Part shown: positions 44,702 through 50,962 of the stretch, in pieces | How the letters are laid out: every line of letters begins with the position of its first letter | Position numbering within the stretch: the stretch's first letter is position 1 | From: an uncultured Chlorobiaceae bacterium | Lineage (GTDB): Bacteria; Bacteroidota; Chlorobiia; Chlorobiales; Chlorobiaceae | Direction: 5' to 3' | NCBI GenBank assembly: GCA_903866255.1 | Contig: CAIPMW010000067.1 | Coordinates: forward strand, 1 to 51,517 | Length of the DNA stretch: 51,517 nucleotides | The notes under the pieces: generated by a model | The model's database searches: none | What the model was told of the DNA's origin: nothing | Seen by the model: the letters and a program-made list of their open reading frames with translations, nothing else | Position numbers and translations under genes: made by a program

Positions 44702-46591
44702 ATGCTTAAAAAAATCCTGACAAGAATCACTGACCGTAACCTATGGCCCCGCAACTGGTGGTATCCTGGGCCCAAAAAGGATAACCGTCATGCTGATGTG
44801 GTCAAGATGCTGCATGAGAGCCATTCAAAAGCGATCAATAAAACCATGCTCTCGCTGCTTGGTGTCGGCTTGTACAGTCTGCTGGCGGTGGTTGGCTCAC
44901 CCGACAAGTCGCTGATTGCCACCAACAGCTCCATTCAAACACCACTGGTTGGCACCTCAATCTCTTTTCAGGGTTTTCTGATTGTCTCGCCCTTTCTTCT
45001 TGTCATCCTGACCGTCTATCTTCACATCCTGTATGGCAAATGGCTGCGGCTTGAAACAAAGCGAGAAGATCTGAACAAAGAGCCAGCGAACGCCGGTGAG
45101 CCAACCATTGAGAGTGTTCCAGCCATTTTCAGTTTTAGCGACCGTCTGCCCCGGTTTGTCACCACCTTTATCTTTTACTGGTTTGTGCCGTTGATCTTGT
45201 GCGTCATGGCCTCCAAGGCGTTCGCTCTCAAAGAGTTGATTCGCCCTATGTTTTATGTCGCCTCTGTCGTGACACTTGCTCTTCTTTTTTTGCGGATTAA
45301 TCGTTGTCCCGAAAGGAAACGGTTCTGGCGAAATGCTCCGCGCTGGATACTTCTCGCACTGCTTGTTGCGTTTATGGGTTATTTTCCCTCTGTTTCCGAC
45401 TCATTCCGCAGGCCACTGAATCTCCAGCGGGAAGATCTTCATGAAGCCTGGCTGCAAGGGCTGGATTTGACCGGCGCTGATATGAGTAATGCCAATCTGA
45501 AAGGGGCAAACCTCAGCGGTGCTATTCTTCAAAAAGCACATCTTGATGAAGCCAATTTGCTCGATGCTGATCTCAGAACGGCAAAACTTCAGGCTGCCTC
45601 CCTTAACAAAGCCAATCTTCAGAAAGCAAAGCTGACCTTCGCCGATTTTGAGGAAGCCGACCTCACGTTAGCGACTTTTACTGGTGCGACTCTCCAGAAT
45701 ACCAATTTTCAGAGTGCTGATATCAGGTATGCCAATTTCAGGGATTTCGTAAAAGAAGGAGAGTTTGATTCCCATCGGCTCAAATATGCCCAAAATTGGG
45801 AAAAGGCGTTTTACAGCAGTGAGTTGCTTGCAGCTCTCAAGCTGCCAAAAAGCCACAATGATGACCTGAACAAGGATTGGGACAAAACGTATGCTGAAGT
45901 GGAGCACTATCAATCGGAGAATAGTTTTCAAAACCTTCTCAAGGCAGGGTATCGAGTGGTTGAGCATCACGTCAAAAAGAATTTTCAAATGGTTAAGCGT
46001 TGGTTGAATATCGATGATAAGGGTACGGTTCCTGTCGTGGATGTTGGTGATGAGTATGGCGGCGGGATAGTTGCTTATCTCTTCCAGCCAGGCGACAAGG
46101 GTTACAATAAAAATAAACAGCATGGGCTGATTGCTGCCAAATCAGATATCCAGATCAATTACACCGATGCGTGGGGCTATGGGGATCAAAAGGATTCTTT
46201 TCGATGGAGCACGGGAGAAACGGGAAAAGAGGGTAACGCTGATTATGCCTGGCAGGAACTTCTCAACACCAGTACACGGTTAGGTGAAGGTGCGGCCAAT
46301 ACTGATAAAATATTGGCGAAGTATCCGTCGGAAAAGTATCCCTATACTGCGGCGGCAGTGGCGAGAGCATATCGTGGCGGAGGTTTTGATGACTGGTATT
46401 TGCCGAGCAAAAGGGAACTTAATAAGCTTTTTTACGTCAAAAGTGCTGTTGGCGGTTTTTCTGACGGCGGCTACTGGAGTTCTACGGAGAGCGGTGCGGT
46501 CGGCGCGTGGAACCAGTACTTCTACATTGGCAGCCAGGGCGGCAGCAGCAAGGACCACGCATGGCGAGTTCGGGCTGTGCGGGCTTTTTAA
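44702..46591 (+). CDS. DGR target 1: membrane protein with pentapeptide repeats and variable C-terminal domain
   Basis: Protein of 629 residues. About five hydrophobic spans lie in residues 38-225 (for example 'GFLIVSPFLLVILTVYLHIL', 'FVTTFIFYWFVPLILCVMA', 'WILLALLVAFMGYF'). Pentapeptide repeats (A(D/N)LxxA type: 'GADMSNANLKGANLSGAIL') run from about 258 to 345. A helical linker leads to a DUF1566/C-type-lectin-like domain from about 440 ('VGDEYGGGIVAYLF', 'HGLIAAKSD', 'FDDWYLPSKRELNKLF'), ending in VR1 (residues 581-629) with 'WRVRAVRAF' at the C terminus. Placement at the head of the retroelement makes it the main diversified product. The ligand is unknown. Confidence 0.88.
   Translation: MLKKILTRITDRNLWPRNWWYPGPKKDNRHADVVKMLHESHSKAINKTMLSLLGVGLYSLLAVVGSPDKSLIATNSSIQTPLVGTSISFQGFLIVSPFLLVILTVYLHILYGKWLRLETKREDLNKEPANAGEPTIESVPAIFSFSDRLPRFVTTFIFYWFVPLILCVMASKAFALKELIRPMFYVASVVTLALLFLRINRCPERKRFWRNAPRWILLALLVAFMGYFPSVSDSFRRPLNLQREDLHEAWLQGLDLTGADMSNANLKGANLSGAILQKAHLDEANLLDADLRTAKLQAASLNKANLQKAKLTFADFEEADLTLATFTGATLQNTNFQSADIRYANFRDFVKEGEFDSHRLKYAQNWEKAFYSSELLAALKLPKSHNDDLNKDWDKTYAEVEHYQSENSFQNLLKAGYRVVEHHVKKNFQMVKRWLNIDDKGTVPVVDVGDEYGGGIVAYLFQPGDKGYNKNKQHGLIAAKSDIQINYTDAWGYGDQKDSFRWSTGETGKEGNADYAWQELLNTSTRLGEGAANTDKILAKYPSEKYPYTAAAVARAYRGGGFDDWYLPSKRELNKLFYVKSAVGGFSDGGYWSSTESGAVGAWNQYFYIGSQGGSSKDHAWRVRAVRAF
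46442..46588 (+). repeat. DGR variable repeat VR1
   Basis: 147 bases at the 3' end of target gene 1, colinear with the template repeat at 47164-47310. By hand alignment, 24 of the template's 47 adenines are replaced (by G, T or C) and every other base is identical, except one G-to-C difference in the second-last codon. The unchanged 3' part, ending GCTGTGCGGG, would be the initiation-of-mutagenic-homing region. Most template AAC codons have become Gly, Ser, Tyr, Val, Asp or His. Confidence 0.95.
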
Positions 46592-46623
46592 CCATTTATC
46601 TATTCAACAATTAAGGGGGTACC

Positions 46624-46638
46624 GGGGGCAGCGCCCCC
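46624..46638. other. DGR hairpin downstream of VR1
   Basis: Stem GGGGGC/GCCCCC with loop AGC, beginning 35 bases after the end of VR1. It has no T-run behind it, so it is not a terminator. An equivalent hairpin with a different loop follows VR2 at the same distance. In the Bordetella phage DGR a hairpin or cruciform just behind the VR is needed for efficient target recognition; a like role is inferred. Confidence 0.65.
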
Positions 46639-46659
46639 AGTCAAAAAATATTTTGGATT

Positions 46660-47013
46660 ATGGCGCTTTACTATGATTTACCAGTGTATCGTGATGTCTA
46701 TCGTCTGATCCTGAAAATCGTTGAGTACACCAAAGATTTTCCACGTGAGTACAAATACTCGCTTGGCCAGGATCTAAAGCACGACAGTATTGTGCTGGTG
46801 CGCAGCATCTACAGGGCCAACAAAGCCAAAAGCAAGACCGAGTATCTTGAAGTATTTCTTGACGATTTTGAAATCCTTAAACTGGAGGTGCGCTTATGTG
46901 TTGACCTGAAAATTCTGCCCATGAAAAAGCAGGCCGAGATTACCGGTCTCATGGATGGAATTGGTAAACAAATTACCGGATGGCGTAATGCCGGGTCGGT
47001 GAAAGGTGCCTGA
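46660..47013 (+). CDS. avd: DGR accessory variability determinant (four-helix bundle)
   Basis: Protein of 117 residues, helical throughout: 'YYDLPVYRDVYRLILKIVEYTKDFPREYKYSLGQDLK' then 'SIVLVRSIYRANKAKSKTEYLEVFLDDFEILKLEVRLCVDL' and a last helix with 'IGKQITGW'. This matches Avd/four-helix-bundle proteins, basic pentamers that bind the reverse transcriptase and template RNA and are needed for mutagenic homing. Place between VR1 and the template repeat is the same as in the Bordetella phage element. A shortened second copy lies at 50652. Confidence 0.92.
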   Translation: MALYYDLPVYRDVYRLILKIVEYTKDFPREYKYSLGQDLKHDSIVLVRSIYRANKAKSKTEYLEVFLDDFEILKLEVRLCVDLKILPMKKQAEITGLMDGIGKQITGWRNAGSVKGA

Positions 47014-47163: not shown

Positions 47164-47310
47164 AGTGCTGTTGGCGGTTTTTCTGACAACAACTACTGGA
47201 GTTCTACGGAGAACGATGCAAACAACGCGTGGAACCAGAACTTCAACAATGGCAACCAGAACAACAACAACAAGAACAACACATGGCGAGTTCGGGCTGT
47301 GCGGGGTTTT
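47164..47310 (+). repeat. DGR template repeat (TR)
   Basis: 147 bases, non-varying master copy for the variable repeats. In the VR frame it reads as 49 codons with 15 AAC and one AAT, the usual adenine-rich design giving maximal diversity when A is mutated. It begins AGTGCTGTTGGCGG and ends GTGCGGGGTTTT. It lies 150 bases behind avd and 51 before the RT start. The stretch 47014-47163 between avd and TR holds no gene and is probably part of the template RNA, which is transcribed with flanks. Confidence 0.95.
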
Positions 47311-47361
47311 GAACAAGCAGTTGTATCGCCCGGATGGAATTATCTCTGGGCGGTATGCATT

Positions 47362-48621
47362 ATGACGGACAACACATCGTTGCAACTCGAATTGTTTCCC
47401 TTTTCAGCCCCAATTCCTCTTGTTGATCTTTTTGAGGCTTATGAAGGCTGTCGCCGACACAAGCGAAATACGGTCAATGCCATAGCTTTTGAACTCGACT
47501 ATGAACAAAATCTTGTTGAGCTTTGTTACGAAATTAATAATGGCAGTTACCAGCCGGGGAAGTCAATCGCCTTTATTGTTGAGCGACCAGTCAAGCGTGA
47601 AATATTTGCCGCTGACTTTCGTGACCGCGTTGTTCATCACCTCATCATCAATAAACTGAATGCCCTTTTTGAAAAAGAGTTTATTGGCGACAGTTACTCT
47701 TGCCGGAAAGGAAAAGGTACGCATAAAGGAATAAAGCGTCTGGATGGCTTTATCCGCCAGTGCTCACAAAACTATAGCCGCGACTGCTGGATTTTAAAGC
47801 TTGATATCAAAGGCTTTTTCATGAGCATCGATCGTCAGCGTCTTTACTATCGTCTGGAACTGTTCATCAATAATAATTATCACGCTCCTGATCGTCCTCT
47901 CCTGCTCGATCTTTGTCGAAAAGTGGTTTTTTACGATCCTGCAGCTAATTGTATTATCAAAGGGAAACGCTCAAACTGGAAGGGCTTGCCTGACGACAAA
48001 AGTCTTTTTCACTCTCGCCCGGGATGCGGCTTACCCATTGGCAACCTGACCAGCCAGGTGTTTGCCAACTTCTACCTTAACTCGTTTGATCATTTTATGA
48101 AACACACCCTTGGGTTGCGATACTATGGTCGTTACGTTGATGATGGAGTTGCGGTACATCAGAATCCTGTTTTTCTGAACTCATTGCTGCCAGTCATTCG
48201 TGCTTATCTGCAGCAGGAGCTTGGGTTGATACTGCATCCAAAAAAAATATTTCTTGAGCATTACACCCGGGGAGTCAAGTATCTTGGAGTTGTTATCAAG
48301 CCTCGCAGAATTTATGTCGCCAACCGTACAAAAGGCAATATGTACCGCGCTCTTTTAAAGTATAACCGGATAGCGCAAACGCATAAACCCTGGCATGCCG
48401 AGCGTACAGCCTTCCAGAGCAGTATCAACTCCTATCTCGGCTTGATGAAACATTATCATACATACTCCCTCCGTCGTTCCATGTTGCGCAAGCATCTTTC
48501 GCCCTGGTGGCTGAGGCTGGCCAAGGCAAATGCCCGGCTTGAAAAATTCACGCTCAAAATAAGGCCGCGCCGGTCAAAGAGAGGTCGATTCTCGAAAAAG
48601 CAACGGCTCAAGCGTGTATGA
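47362..48621 (+). CDS. DGR reverse transcriptase
   Basis: Protein of 419 residues from ATG 47362 (MTDNTSLQL). It copies the template RNA with errors at adenines. RT motifs: 'LKLDIKGFF' with the first catalytic Asp at 148, 'LPIGNLTSQVFANFYLN' (from 224, the [L/I]GxxxSQ motif typical of DGR enzymes) and 'YVDD' (258-261). It ends in an unusually basic tail 'RPRRSKRGRFSKKQRLKR'. No maturase or endonuclease domain, so not a group II intron RT. The frame is open upstream through the whole TR to 47077. Confidence 0.95.
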   Translation: MTDNTSLQLELFPFSAPIPLVDLFEAYEGCRRHKRNTVNAIAFELDYEQNLVELCYEINNGSYQPGKSIAFIVERPVKREIFAADFRDRVVHHLIINKLNALFEKEFIGDSYSCRKGKGTHKGIKRLDGFIRQCSQNYSRDCWILKLDIKGFFMSIDRQRLYYRLELFINNNYHAPDRPLLLDLCRKVVFYDPAANCIIKGKRSNWKGLPDDKSLFHSRPGCGLPIGNLTSQVFANFYLNSFDHFMKHTLGLRYYGRYVDDGVAVHQNPVFLNSLLPVIRAYLQQELGLILHPKKIFLEHYTRGVKYLGVVIKPRRIYVANRTKGNMYRALLKYNRIAQTHKPWHAERTAFQSSINSYLGLMKHYHTYSLRRSMLRKHLSPWWLRLAKANARLEKFTLKIRPRRSKRGRFSKKQRLKRV

Positions 48622-48648: not shown

Positions 48649-48843
48649 ATGAAAAGGGAGCAAACTCCATGCTCCTTGGCTTTTTGGAATGCTATATTAA
48701 GGATTCCACCGGCAAATCGTCTTGGAAAGCTCTCGGGTAAAAACAAAGATTTTTACAGCATAGGGATTAACGATCAATGGAGAATCATCTTCAAATGGGC
48801 AGACGGAAATGCCTCCGAAGCAGAAATTATTGACTATCACTGA
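48649..48843 (+). CDS. HigB-type toxin, N-terminally shortened
   Basis: Protein of 64 residues with the C-terminal two thirds of HigB/RelE toxins: 'IPPANRLGKLSGKNKDFYSIGINDQWRIIFKW' then 'EIIDYH'. Intact family members have ~92 residues; the first ~35 (two helices) are replaced by an unrelated 'MKREQTPCSLAFWNA'. It is probably inactive, although the mRNA-binding strands and terminal His remain. One base separates its stop from the start of higA. It begins 27 bases after the RT stop. Confidence 0.65.
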   Translation: MKREQTPCSLAFWNAILRIPPANRLGKLSGKNKDFYSIGINDQWRIIFKWADGNASEAEIIDYH

Positions 48844-48844
48844 A

Positions 48845-49147
48845 ATGAACGAACTCAGAAATATTCATCCGGGAGAGGTCTTGATGGAGGAGTTTTTAAT
48901 TCCACTGGAGATCTCTGCGTACCGGCTTTCCAAAGATATCGGGATTCCTCAGACCCGGATATCCGGGATAGTGAAAGGGAAGAGACGTGTTACCGCTGAC
49001 ACGGCATTGCGCCTTTCACAATATTTTGGTAATTCCGCAAAGTTCTGGTTAGGTCTGCAAGATGACTATGACCTTGAGGAGGGGATGCAGATCAAGAGAG
49101 AAGCAATACATTCTATTCTTCGCTACAAGAGCAGCATGATGGCATAA
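48845..49147 (+). CDS. higA: HigA-type antitoxin
   Basis: Protein of 100 residues from ATG 48845 (MNELRNIHPG). 'IHPGEVLMEEFLIPLEISAYRLSKDIGIPQTRISGIVKGKRRVTADTALRLSQYFG' is the HigA/VapI helix-turn-helix pattern, followed by 'FWLGLQDDYDL'. It looks intact and complete. A longer in-frame start at 48809 lies inside the toxin gene and is unlikely. As it can bind DNA it may still regulate this locus even if the toxin is dead. Confidence 0.9.
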   Translation: MNELRNIHPGEVLMEEFLIPLEISAYRLSKDIGIPQTRISGIVKGKRRVTADTALRLSQYFGNSAKFWLGLQDDYDLEEGMQIKREAIHSILRYKSSMMA

Positions 49148-49220: not shown

Positions 49221-50543
49221 ATGCCCGATATTTTTATCAGCTACGCCCACGAGGATCAGGAGCGTATCAGGCCAATAGTTCAAGAGCTTGAAAAACGTTG
49301 GAGTGTTTTTTGGGACAAAAAGATTCCGCCAGGGAAAACATGGGAGGACTCCATTGGCAAAGCGTTGGAAGAGTCGCCCTGTGTTCTTGTTGTCTGGTCG
49401 CACTCTTCTGTAAAGTCAGATTGGGTTAAAGAGGAGGCGGACGTGGCCAAGAAAAGGGATACTTTTGTGCCTCTTTTTCTTGACAAGGTTGAACCGCCAA
49501 TGGGATTTCGGAGGATTCATGCAGCGGATCTCTCTGACTGGAAAAACAACAACGCTCATCAGGGATTTCAGTTACTCATTGGCGCGATTGAATCCAAAAT
49601 TTCTCCTGCAACACAGCCTGTTACAGACTCCCGACCGGTGTCAATGCCGGACACGGTTTCATTAGAGGGTGCCGGGCACACATCACCACAACGCAAGCCG
49701 GAGCGGCAACCGATTGGAAACGTAAGCTGGGTTCAAAAAAACCAGCTTGTAATAGTTGTTGCTGTAGTGATGCTGGTTATACTTGGCGTTGTCTGGAGTA
49801 TGAAACAGCCACAGTCAAAAGTTGAACCTAAACCTGCGCCCATCGCTGAGGTAGTAAAAGGAAATCCTGAGGCAGAAGCCCCTCGAAAAGCGGAGGCGGC
49901 ACGGTTGAAGGCAGAGCAAGATGCGGCCACTCGTCGTGAAGCTGAAGCCGCAAAGGCAAGGCAAGATGCAGATGCTCGTCGAAAAGCGGAGGATGCGCGT
50001 TTGGCTGCGGCGAAAGATGCTGTATCTCGTCGTGCAGCAGAAGCCGCAAAGGCAAAGCAGGACGCAGAAGCTCTTCGAAAAGAAGAAGCTCGGTTGAAGG
50101 CAGAGAAAGATGTGGCTCGTCGCGAGGCGAAAGCAAAGGAAAAGTTGGACGCAGATGCTCGCCGCGAAGCGGCAGTGGTAAAGTCTCGACAAGAAGCCGA
50201 AGCGAAAAAAACGCTTAAAATCGGTGACGAATATGGAGGTGGAAAAATTTTCTCGCTCGATCCTACAGGCCAGCACGGACTGATTGCGGCGAAAGCGGAT
50301 TTATCAGGTCACTCTGAGGGTAAATCTGAAGGGCGGTTTACATGGGAAGATGCGAAAGCAAAATGCGCAGCCCTCGGTGGTGGGTGGCGTTTGCCGAGTA
50401 AAAGTGAACTCAATGACCCTTATCACGCTAAAAGTGCTGTTGGCGGTTTTTCCGGCGGCGGCTACTGGAGTTCTACGGAGGACAGTGCGGATGGCGCCTG
50501 GGCGTCAGTACTTCGGCAGTGGCTACCAGGGCAACGACGGTAA
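49221..50543 (+). CDS. DGR target 2: TIR - transmembrane - coiled coil - DUF1566 receptor-like protein (frameshifted end)
   Basis: Protein of 440 residues. The TIR domain (1-130) starts 'PDIFISYAHEDQERIRPIV', has 'CVLVVWSHSSVKSDWVKEEADVA' with Glu71 at the position of the NADase catalytic Glu, then 'FVPLFLD'. A single span 'LVIVVAVVMLVILGVVW' lies at about 175-193 with basic residues before it (N-terminus inside). Residues ~210-330 are an Ala/Lys/Glu/Arg coiled coil, TolA-like. From 332 comes a DUF1566-like domain ('KIGDEYGGGKIF', 'QHGLIAAKAD', 'GGGWRLPSKSEL') ending in VR2. An extra base near 50502-50505 shifts the frame; without it the protein would run to 50583 and end in VRAVRAF like target 1. 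Confidence 0.9.
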   Translation: MPDIFISYAHEDQERIRPIVQELEKRWSVFWDKKIPPGKTWEDSIGKALEESPCVLVVWSHSSVKSDWVKEEADVAKKRDTFVPLFLDKVEPPMGFRRIHAADLSDWKNNNAHQGFQLLIGAIESKISPATQPVTDSRPVSMPDTVSLEGAGHTSPQRKPERQPIGNVSWVQKNQLVIVVAVVMLVILGVVWSMKQPQSKVEPKPAPIAEVVKGNPEAEAPRKAEAARLKAEQDAATRREAEAAKARQDADARRKAEDARLAAAKDAVSRRAAEAAKAKQDAEALRKEEARLKAEKDVARREAKAKEKLDADARREAAVVKSRQEAEAKKTLKIGDEYGGGKIFSLDPTGQHGLIAAKADLSGHSEGKSEGRFTWEDAKAKCAALGGGWRLPSKSELNDPYHAKSAVGGFSGGGYWSSTEDSADGAWASVLRQWLPGQRR

Positions 50544-50580
50544 GAGTTTCGGGGGGTGTGTTCGGGCGGTGCGGGCTTTT
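50433..50580 (+). repeat. DGR variable repeat VR2, diverged and frameshifted
   Basis: 148 bases at the end of the TIR gene aligning with the template over its full length, with one inserted base at about 50502-50505 (TGGGCGTCAG against TGGAACCAG). Many template adenines differ, but so do about ten other bases (for example TCT/TCC, GCG/GCC, TGGCGA/GGGTGT near the 3' end). The 3' end GTGCGGGCTTTTTAA matches VR1. It is an old or poorly served target rather than a freshly diversified one. Confidence 0.88.
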
Positions 50581-50615
50581 TAACCATTTATCTATTCAAC
50601 AATTAAGGGGGTACC

Positions 50616-50630
50616 GGGGGCAAAGCCCCC
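50616..50630. other. DGR hairpin downstream of VR2
   Basis: Stem GGGGGC/GCCCCC with loop AAA, 35 bases behind VR2, matching the VR1 hairpin in stem and position but with a different loop. The flanking ~90 bases are nearly the same as those behind VR1, so both descend from one duplicated segment. Confidence 0.65.
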
Positions 50631-50651
50631 AGTCGAAAAATATTTTGGATT

Positions 50652-50813
50652 ATGGTGCTCTACTATGATTTCAACGTCATCTGTTGTCTGATCCTGAAAA
50701 TCGTTGAGTACACCAAAGATTTCCCGCAAAAGTACAAATCCATTCTTGGTCAGGAACTCAAGCAAGATCGCCCGAGAGTGTACAATTTTGCCATACATGG
50801 GGATAAAAAGTGA
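50652..50813 (+). pseudogene. Truncated second copy of avd
   Basis: ATG at 50652 opens 53 codons. The first ~39 follow avd closely ('LILKIVEYTKDFP' identical; 'YKSILGQELKQD' against 'YKYSLGQDLKHD'), with a two-codon deletion near codon 10. After codon 39 the sequence switches to an unrelated 'RPRVYNFAIHGDKK' and stops. Two thirds of Avd are missing, so it cannot form the four-helix bundle. It shows a second DGR cassette once followed VR2. Confidence 0.85.
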
Positions 50814-50962
50814 AAATCAAACAACTGGATATTGAGGGCTTTCGTTCGCTCCGAAACGTATCATGGATGCCCGGCGATCTCAATGTGATTATCGGCACTA
50901 ATGGCACCGGCAAGTCATCATCAATCCTCAACTTGCGGAAGAGTGCGGGAGAATTGACGTGA
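50810..50962 (+). pseudogene. N-terminal fragment of an AAA/RecF-type ATPase
   Basis: From GTG 50810: 'KIKQLDIEGFRSLRNVSW', then 'LNVIIGTNGTGKSS' with a full Walker A, then after a few codons an unrelated end and stop at 50960-50962. This is the standard beginning of OLD/RecF/SMC-like ATPases (AAA_21/AAA_23), many of them phage-defence proteins. All later motifs are missing. The break lies at about 50925, where the minus-strand DUF2281 gene begins to overlap. Confidence 0.65.

What the first reader, a model, noticed from the sequence alone, without database searches (positions are those of the whole stretch)
49221..50583. Toll-receptor-like protein with a diversifiable end: TIR - TM - coiled coil - variable lectin-like domain
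The N-terminal TIR domain keeps Glu71 at the NADase position. One transmembrane helix with basic residues on the N side puts TIR in the cytosol and the coiled coil plus DUF1566/VR2 domain in the periplasm or outside. TIR domains in bacteria commonly act as NAD-consuming effectors in defence. A retroelement-diversified sensor joined through a membrane to such an effector would be an adaptive-receptor design. The architecture is visible; the function is inference.
Basis: partly seen in the sequence, partly recalled or inferred. Interest (0 to 1): 0.9.

Follow-up and report, generated by a model that had tools for sequence, protein, structure and literature searches.

The report
Retroelement-diversified TIR membrane receptor, frameshifted copy
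A green sulfur bacterium carries a Toll-domain protein that probably spans the inner membrane and ends in a lectin-like tip rewritten by a nearby mutagenic reverse transcriptase, much like a bacterial adaptive receptor; the copy in this window is frameshifted in the tip, but intact, visibly diversified copies exist in close relatives.

Summary
The architecture is real: TIR (E 1.9e-24), one TM helix, a ~120-residue helical stalk and a C-terminal Lcl_C/C-type-lectin domain ending in a DGR variable repeat (VR2). Two corrections: VR2 here has one extra base, so the ORF stops at 50543 (not 50583) and the lectin is truncated; the catalytic-position glutamate is E72, not E71. VR2 was written from another TR version (non-A changes 11/92 against the resident TR, 1/96 against a sister genome's). 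In five relatives with TR and TIR target together, differences are adenine-only. Near-identical gene pairs differ almost only in the VR (29/151 versus 6/1,260 nt elsewhere). The hairpin following each VR occurs only twice in the 2.8-Mb genome. TIR-TM relatives ending in SPOR or OmpA support TIR-in/lectin-out. A Rhodospirillales DGR diversifies an independent TIR-TM-FGE protein. Most likely this is an envelope-facing, anticipatorily diversified sensor coupled to a cytosolic TIR effector; NADase activity, ligand and defence role are inference. TIR-containing DGR targets are published, so this is a new transmembrane variant of a known kind.

The parts
44702..46591 (+). DGR target 1: 4-5 TM helices, pentapeptide repeats, C-terminal Lcl_C domain (629 aa)
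   Evidence: Pfam Pentapeptide 1.3e-22, Lcl_C 1e-8; TM segments
46442..46592 (+). VR1 of target 1
   Evidence: 82.8% identical to TR; A-sites changed 24/47, non-A 0/92, Fisher p 3e-14
46622..46640 (+). GC hairpin (GGGGGC-AGC-GCCCCC) downstream of VR1, candidate DGR target-recognition element
46660..47013 (+). Avd accessory protein
   Evidence: Pfam bAvd 6.6e-18
47164..47314 (+). TR (template repeat), adenine-rich; 16 Asn codons in the target frame
47362..48621 (+). DGR reverse transcriptase (419 aa), with IGNLTSQ and YVDD motifs
   Evidence: RVT_1 9.7e-19; motifs
49221..50543 (+). DGR target 2: TIR (res. 4-119; E72 at catalytic position) - TM (176-194) - helical stalk - Lcl_C lectin domain, truncated by frameshift in VR2
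49872..50116 (+). 96-bp (32-aa) tandem repeats encoding part of the stalk
   Evidence: TRF 2.6 copies, 74% matches
50433..50584 (+). VR2; one inserted base relative to TR; written from a TR version unlike the resident one
50614..50632 (+). GC hairpin (GGGGGC-AAA-GCCCCC) downstream of VR2
50653..50780 (+). Remnant of a second avd start, trace of duplication of VR1's 3' flank
   Evidence: alignment of 46435-47005 with 50420-50830

Best explanation
The gene is the second target of a DGR and encodes (in intact relatives) an inner-membrane receptor. The N-terminal TIR is in the cytosol; one TM helix leads to a long helical stalk in the periplasm that carries an Lcl-type C-type-lectin tip, whose residues are rewritten by error-prone reverse transcription from the TR. 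SHOWN by sequence: domain order, adenine-specific rewriting in relatives, hypervariation confined to the VR between near-identical genes, a conserved hairpin after the VRs, and frame loss in this copy. INFERRED: topology; trimeric clustering (by analogy with Legionella Lcl); binding of an envelope ligand (phage or competitor component, or partner-cell surface) brings TIR domains together; the TIR then cleaves NAD+ (E72) or makes a NAD-derived signal, stopping growth or killing the cell. In this strain the tip is frameshifted, and a fresh round of retrohoming could overwrite it.
For: TIR fold and Glu: TIR_2 1.9e-24; E72 aligns with AbTIR's Glu and is invariant; Foldseek hits AbTIR (TMt 0.72), SARM1 and TLR TIRs. 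Tip: CLec model pLDDT 92.6, TM 0.88 to the Legionella Lcl C-terminal domain, reported as a trimer with C-type-lectin-like fold (PMC11162425). Diversification of TIR genes against the TR of the same locus: A 20/43 non-A 0/96 (G006); 15/43, 0/96 (G028); 25/43, 0/96 (G023); 21/48, 0/91 (G031); 14/41, 0/98 (G034). Near-identical pairs: L069/L070 TIR-TM 4/590, stalk 2/470, constant lectin 0/200, VR 29/151; window/L075 TIR-TM 1/590, constant lectin 1/201, VR 25/153. Hairpin twice in the genome, one per VR. Topology: relatives TIR-TM-SPOR and TIR-TM-OmpA, plus a sub-threshold cytochrome c match; a 170-residue N-terminal part without signal sequence. Recurrence: L098 Rhodospirillales TIR-TM-FGE, A 18/33 non-A 2/98. 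Purifying selection on TIR, dN/dS 0.10-0.30 where dS is informative.
Against: The window copy is frameshifted and its VR does not match the resident TR at non-A sites. L077, an ortholog in another MAG, is a pseudogene. Soluble TIR-lectin DGR targets without TM exist in the same genus (L083, L085, L092) and in Chlorobaculum (L093), so periplasmic sensing is not required of the family. G018 (99% complete) has the hypervariable TIR gene but no RT match at E<=1e-20. Flanking charges do not fix topology. There are no enzymatic, ligand or phage data. All Chlorobium-type relatives are MAGs, so indels may be assembly errors.
Confidence: 0.55

Rival explanations
1. Same receptor, but for cell-cell or partner recognition rather than defence: the diversified lectin tip senses kin, aggregate or consortium surfaces and the TIR acts as an oligomerising signalling scaffold.
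For: Lcl is an adhesin domain. A survey of DGR targets favours membrane-anchored binding/adhesion proteins (PMC8144416). Paralogous Lcl_C tips in the genus sit on Ser/Thr kinases and PP2C phosphatases, i.e. ordinary signalling.
Against: The catalytic-position Glu is invariant, more than a scaffold needs. Neighbouring genes in relatives are defence-type AAA_21/DUF4276. A stalk of about 180 A starting at the inner membrane may not reach beyond the outer membrane (inference).
Confidence: 0.22
2. The window gene itself is a decaying pseudogene: the tip frame is lost, VR2 is an orphan of an older TR, and the TIR persists passively.
For: +1 insertion and 11/92 non-A differences from the resident TR. 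Ortholog L077 has stops and frameshifts. G023, nearly identical in the TIR, also has frame-breaking indels in all three VRs.
Against: One substitution in 590 nt of TIR-TM between the window and G023 or G006: no stops have accumulated outside the VR. VR2 fits the G006 TR with only 1 non-A change, so rewriting was recent. The indels lie only in the rewritten core and could be overwritten by the next retrohoming.
Confidence: 0.3
3. The frameshift is an assembly artefact of a hypervariable region (a consensus of many VR variants), and the real gene is intact.
For: All four frame-breaking VR indels found are in two related draft genomes, inside the hypervariable core.
Against: VR1 on the same contig is clean; most other draft genomes have in-frame VRs. 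The indels lie next to adenine runs, as RT slippage would give.
Confidence: 0.35
4. The TIR is not a suicide effector but produces a NAD-derived messenger for a separate effector, as in Thoeris.
For: Weak ThsB_TIR similarity, 24.2 bits against a 21.2 cutoff. AAA_21/DUF4276 genes lie downstream in several relatives.
Against: No ThsA-like gene was recognised next to the locus (by eye). The AAA_21 gene is only a fragment in the window, and it also follows the soluble TIR variant, so it may be just a neighbour in a defence island.
Confidence: 0.2

Closest known systems
DGR-diversified putative antigen sensors of multicellular bacteria (Dore et al. 2024, PMC10907252), incl. Thiohalocapsa DGR 2 target with TIR and CHAT
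   Same: A DGR rewrites a C-terminal CLec domain on a protein that carries a TIR/conflict effector
   Different: DGR 2's target is predicted cytoplasmic and has CHAT; here TIR is the only recognised effector, with a single TM, a long stalk and an Lcl_C-type tip
Cyanobacterial DGR variable proteins (PMC7517822)
   Same: TIR-like domain listed among the less common N-terminal domains grafted to CLec; kinases the commonest
   Different: Most are predicted cytosolic there; no TIR-TM-stalk-Lcl_C form in the passages read
Legionella collagen-like protein Lcl, C-terminal domain (PDB 8q4e, PMC11162425)
   Same: Tip fold: TM 0.88, 36% identity; stalk plus C-terminal DUF1566 head
   Different: Secreted adhesin with collagen stalk; no TIR, no TM receptor, no DGR in the passages read
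AbTIR / SARM1 TIR NADases
   Same: TIR fold and glutamate at the catalytic position
   Different: Activity not shown here; about 20-23% identity in the structural alignment
Animal Toll-like receptors
   Same: Layout: cytosolic TIR, one TM, ectodomain
   Different: Reverse order (TIR N-terminal), lectin tip instead of LRRs, and diversity by DGR rather than germline; resemblance of layout only, no claim of membership

Membership tests
DGR variable protein (target) | TR nearby, with adenine-specific TR-to-VR differences | tested here: met
   Relatives G006, G028, G023, G031, G034: non-A 0/91 to 0/98. Window VR2 against own TR 11/92 non-A, against G006 TR 1/96: met historically, not with the resident TR
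DGR variable protein (target) | Linked RT with [IVL]GxxxSQ and YxDD, and Avd | tested here: met
   IGNLTSQ at 226, YVDD at 258; bAvd 6.6e-18
DGR variable protein (target) | VR in frame, in a C-type-lectin fold | tested here: not met
   Window copy: frame broken by +1. Intact relatives: met. So the gene family is a DGR target; this copy is at present an out-of-frame one
DGR variable protein (target) | Hairpin 3' of VR, absent from TR | tested here: met
   6-bp GC stem at a constant distance, twice in the genome, absent at TR. Loop is 3 nt here versus 4 nt (GRNA) in phage DGRs
TIR NADase | TIR fold | tested here: met
   TIR_2 1.9e-24; pLDDT about 95 and Foldseek
TIR NADase | Catalytic Glu | tested here: met
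   E72, invariant in 12 relatives
TIR NADase | NAD+ cleavage | not testable with these tools
   needs an assay
Single-pass receptor, TIR in, tip out | One TM, N-in topology | tested here: inconclusive
   One TM. Relatives with SPOR/OmpA and lack of a signal peptide support it; charges are indecisive
Thoeris (ThsB) | Adjacent ThsA effector | tested here: inconclusive
   ThsB_TIR 24.2 bits; none recognised by eye among ORFs of 38-51.5 kb, no profile search for ThsA
MoxR/vWA ternary or STAND conflict system | MoxR ATPase and vWA, or STAND NTPase, in locus | tested here: inconclusive
   None recognised by eye among ORFs of 38-51.5 kb, not profile-searched. L093/L099 partner targets matched only FGE in Pfam

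The most novel reading that the evidence does not exclude
A bacterial counterpart of an adaptive Toll-like receptor: a single-pass membrane protein whose periplasmic recognition head is diversified by a retroelement and whose cytosolic TIR domain executes an NAD-based response, evolved at least twice with different lectin heads (Lcl_C in Chlorobium, FGE in a Rhodospirillales bacterium). Frame-breaking slips of the mutagenic RT may be a reversible off-state.
Probability: 0.35. Interest if true: 0.9.

Novelty: new variant of a known kind. Interest (0 to 1): 0.66.

Why it matters
DGR targets with conflict-system domains have been proposed as antigen sensors, but what they see or do has not been shown in the papers read here. 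A one-protein receptor in which a hypervariable head and an enzymatic TIR are joined through a membrane makes the question directly testable: engage the head, measure NAD+. The near-identical gene pairs show that the head changes while the rest stays fixed, which is direct sequence evidence of recent diversification of a TIR protein in natural populations.

Tried and rejected
Phage records gave no relative of the protein and plasmid records only partial TIR or lectin matches, so there is no evidence for a phage or plasmid origin. The positive-inside rule was tried for topology and dropped as indecisive. Genome-wide TR matches at C87 and C43 turned out to be related Lcl_C domains (a kinase-TM-Lcl_C and a secreted one), not proven VRs. 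The AAA_21/DUF4276 pair was considered as the receptor's partner, but it is a fragment in the window and not specific to the transmembrane form. Full-length AF2 left the tip poorly modelled, so the tip was folded alone with its own alignment. A search for further relatives of the L098 protein could not be centred on that locus. VR2's mismatch with the resident TR was first read as decay; comparison with sister TRs showed it had been written from another TR version.

Full report
WHERE. The window is contig C67 of a 2.8-Mb, 99% complete draft genome. Its nearest relatives are Chlorobiaceae MAGs in a genus represented by 36 other held genomes. The finding lies at the 3' end of a complete DGR: target 1 (44702-46591) with VR1, Avd (46660-47013), TR (47164-47314), RT (47362-48621), a HigB-like remnant and HigA-like gene (48649-49147), then the TIR gene (49221-50543) with VR2.

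THE OBSERVATION. TIR_2 covers residues 4-119 at E 1.9e-24. One hydrophobic segment spans 176-194. The following Ala/Lys/Arg/Glu-rich stretch has 96-bp DNA repeats; in the intact relative L072 it is predicted as one 119-residue helix, mostly at pLDDT about 90-95, about 180 A if straight (inference). The C-terminal domain is Lcl_C (DUF1566). In the window it scores only 20.6 bits because it is cut short; in intact relatives 48.5 bits. The stated end at 50583 is not in the same frame: VR2 has one base more than the TR and the ORF stops at 50543. The catalytic-position glutamate, aligned with AbTIR, is E72, invariant in 12 relatives while residue 71 varies.

VR2 AND ITS TR. VR1 is a textbook VR: 24/47 adenines changed and 0/92 other bases. 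VR2 against the same TR has 29/47 adenines changed but also 11/92 others. Against the TR of sister genome G006 it has 24/43 adenines and 1/96 others (p 3e-14). So VR2 was written by DGR chemistry from a different TR version, and the resident TR (with VR1) has since changed or been exchanged (inference). VR2's 3' flank and a remnant of avd copy those of VR1, suggesting that the target was made by duplicating the 3' end of target 1 onto a TIR gene (inference).

DIVERSIFICATION IN RELATIVES. TIR genes against the TR of their own locus: G006 A 20/43, non-A 0/96; G028 15/43, 0/96; G023 25/43, 0/96; G031 21/48, 0/91; G034 14/41, 0/98; G010 21/40, 1/102. Of these G006, G028 and G023 are the transmembrane form; G031, G034 and G010 are a shorter form without TM. 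Pairs of nearly identical genes are the most direct evidence: L069 against L070 differ at 4/590 nt in TIR-TM, 2/470 in the stalk, 0/200 in the constant lectin part and 29/151 in the VR; window against L075 at 1/590, 23/402 (plus length differences), 1/201 and 25/153. For L069/L070 the source TR is not on the held contigs; 22-23 of 29 differences fall on adenines of the closest TRs.

CIS ELEMENT. Both VRs in the window are followed at the same distance by a GC hairpin, GGGGGC-NNN-GCCCCC, found nowhere else in the genome at up to one mismatch and absent after the TR. Most relatives have it, some with a 9-bp stem and TTTT loop; it is missing after the degenerate VR of L076 (second TIR gene) and after L106, L081 (first gene) and L082. 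A hairpin downstream of VR is required for BPP-1 retrohoming (PMC3240598), where stems are 7-10 bp and loops 4 nt GRNA; the Chlorobium loop is 3 nt, so equivalence is by position and structure, not by loop sequence.

FRAMESHIFTS. Frame-breaking indels occur in window VR2 (+1) and in all three VRs of G023 (-1, +1, +2), always inside the rewritten core and beside adenine runs. RT slippage on the template is one reading; misassembly of a hypervariable stretch is another. Both genomes are drafts and reads are not available. If slippage is real, the next retrohoming could replace the VR and restore or change the tip (inference).

STRUCTURE. The tip folded alone gives pLDDT 92.6 and matches the C-terminal domain of Legionella Lcl (TM 0.88, 36% identity), then snake-venom C-type lectins. 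Lcl is a trimer with a C-type-lectin-like head on a stalk (PMC11162425). The full model matches AbTIR and other TIR domains. Trimerisation here is inference.

TOPOLOGY. No signal peptide precedes a ~170-residue TIR/linker, so N-in is the ordinary expectation. Relatives of this TIR with one TM end in SPOR (L086), OmpA (L091), a sub-threshold cytochrome c match (L108), Fib_succ_major (L084) and Lcl_C (L129); SPOR and OmpA-like domains bind peptidoglycan outside the cytoplasm (established knowledge). Flanking charges do not discriminate. Target 1 has four predicted TM helices plus a fifth borderline one, which would put its lectin tip outside too (inference).

RECURRENCE. L098 (Rhodospirillales MAG) has TIR - charged helical repeat - TM - FGE with a VR that differs from a local TR at 18/33 adenines and 2/98 others. 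L099 and L093 (Chlorobiales, Chlorobaculum) have soluble TIR-FGE DGR targets beside a second FGE target. TIR joined to a diversified lectin head thus occurs with two different lectin families, and with a TM in both.

MECHANISM. Best reading: an anticipatorily diversified envelope sensor whose ligand-induced clustering activates a cytosolic TIR NADase. Shown: architecture, diversification, conservation of the Glu and purifying selection on TIR (dN/dS 0.10-0.30). Not shown: ligand, NAD+ cleavage, cell death, defence. Rivals are partner or kin recognition, messenger production for another effector, and decay or misassembly of this particular copy.

KNOWN OR NEW. TIR-containing DGR targets are published: Thiohalocapsa DGR 2 with TIR and CHAT (PMC10907252) and TIR-like domains in cyanobacterial variable proteins (PMC7517822). 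DGR-linked FGS domains in conflict systems are in PMC7159879. A single-pass TIR-TM-stalk-lectin DGR target in green sulfur bacteria did not appear in the papers I could search; supplementary tables were not read, so it may be listed somewhere. I file it as a new variant of a known kind.

Noticed in passing
48649-49147: HigBA-like pair between RT and TIR gene; the HigB ORF matches only model positions 45-91, so the toxin looks N-terminally truncated while the HigA-like HTH gene is whole.
   Followed up: no
50811-50920: Start of an AAA_21 ATPase gene that is broken off; relatives L052 and L055 have the intact AAA_21 plus DUF4276 pair (PADLOC HEC-01A/B-like) at this place.
   Followed up: partly
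L058, L063 (genomes G012, G034): Arrays of Ser/Thr kinase-Lcl_C and PP2C-Lcl_C genes, with a fragment of the same DGR RT in L058: the lectin module is shared with eukaryote-like signalling proteins.
   Followed up: partly
L004 336-1656: Kinase-TM-Lcl_C gene elsewhere in the same genome, split into two overlapping frames.
   Followed up: no
L049 3229-3391, 7204-7363, 11303-11464: All three VRs of the close relative G023 carry frame-breaking indels next to adenine runs.
   Followed up: partly
window 50231-50431 compared with L072: Window and G006 differ by 1/590 nt in TIR-TM but 53/183 in the constant lectin part, which suggests exchange of the whole lectin module between lineages.
   Followed up: no
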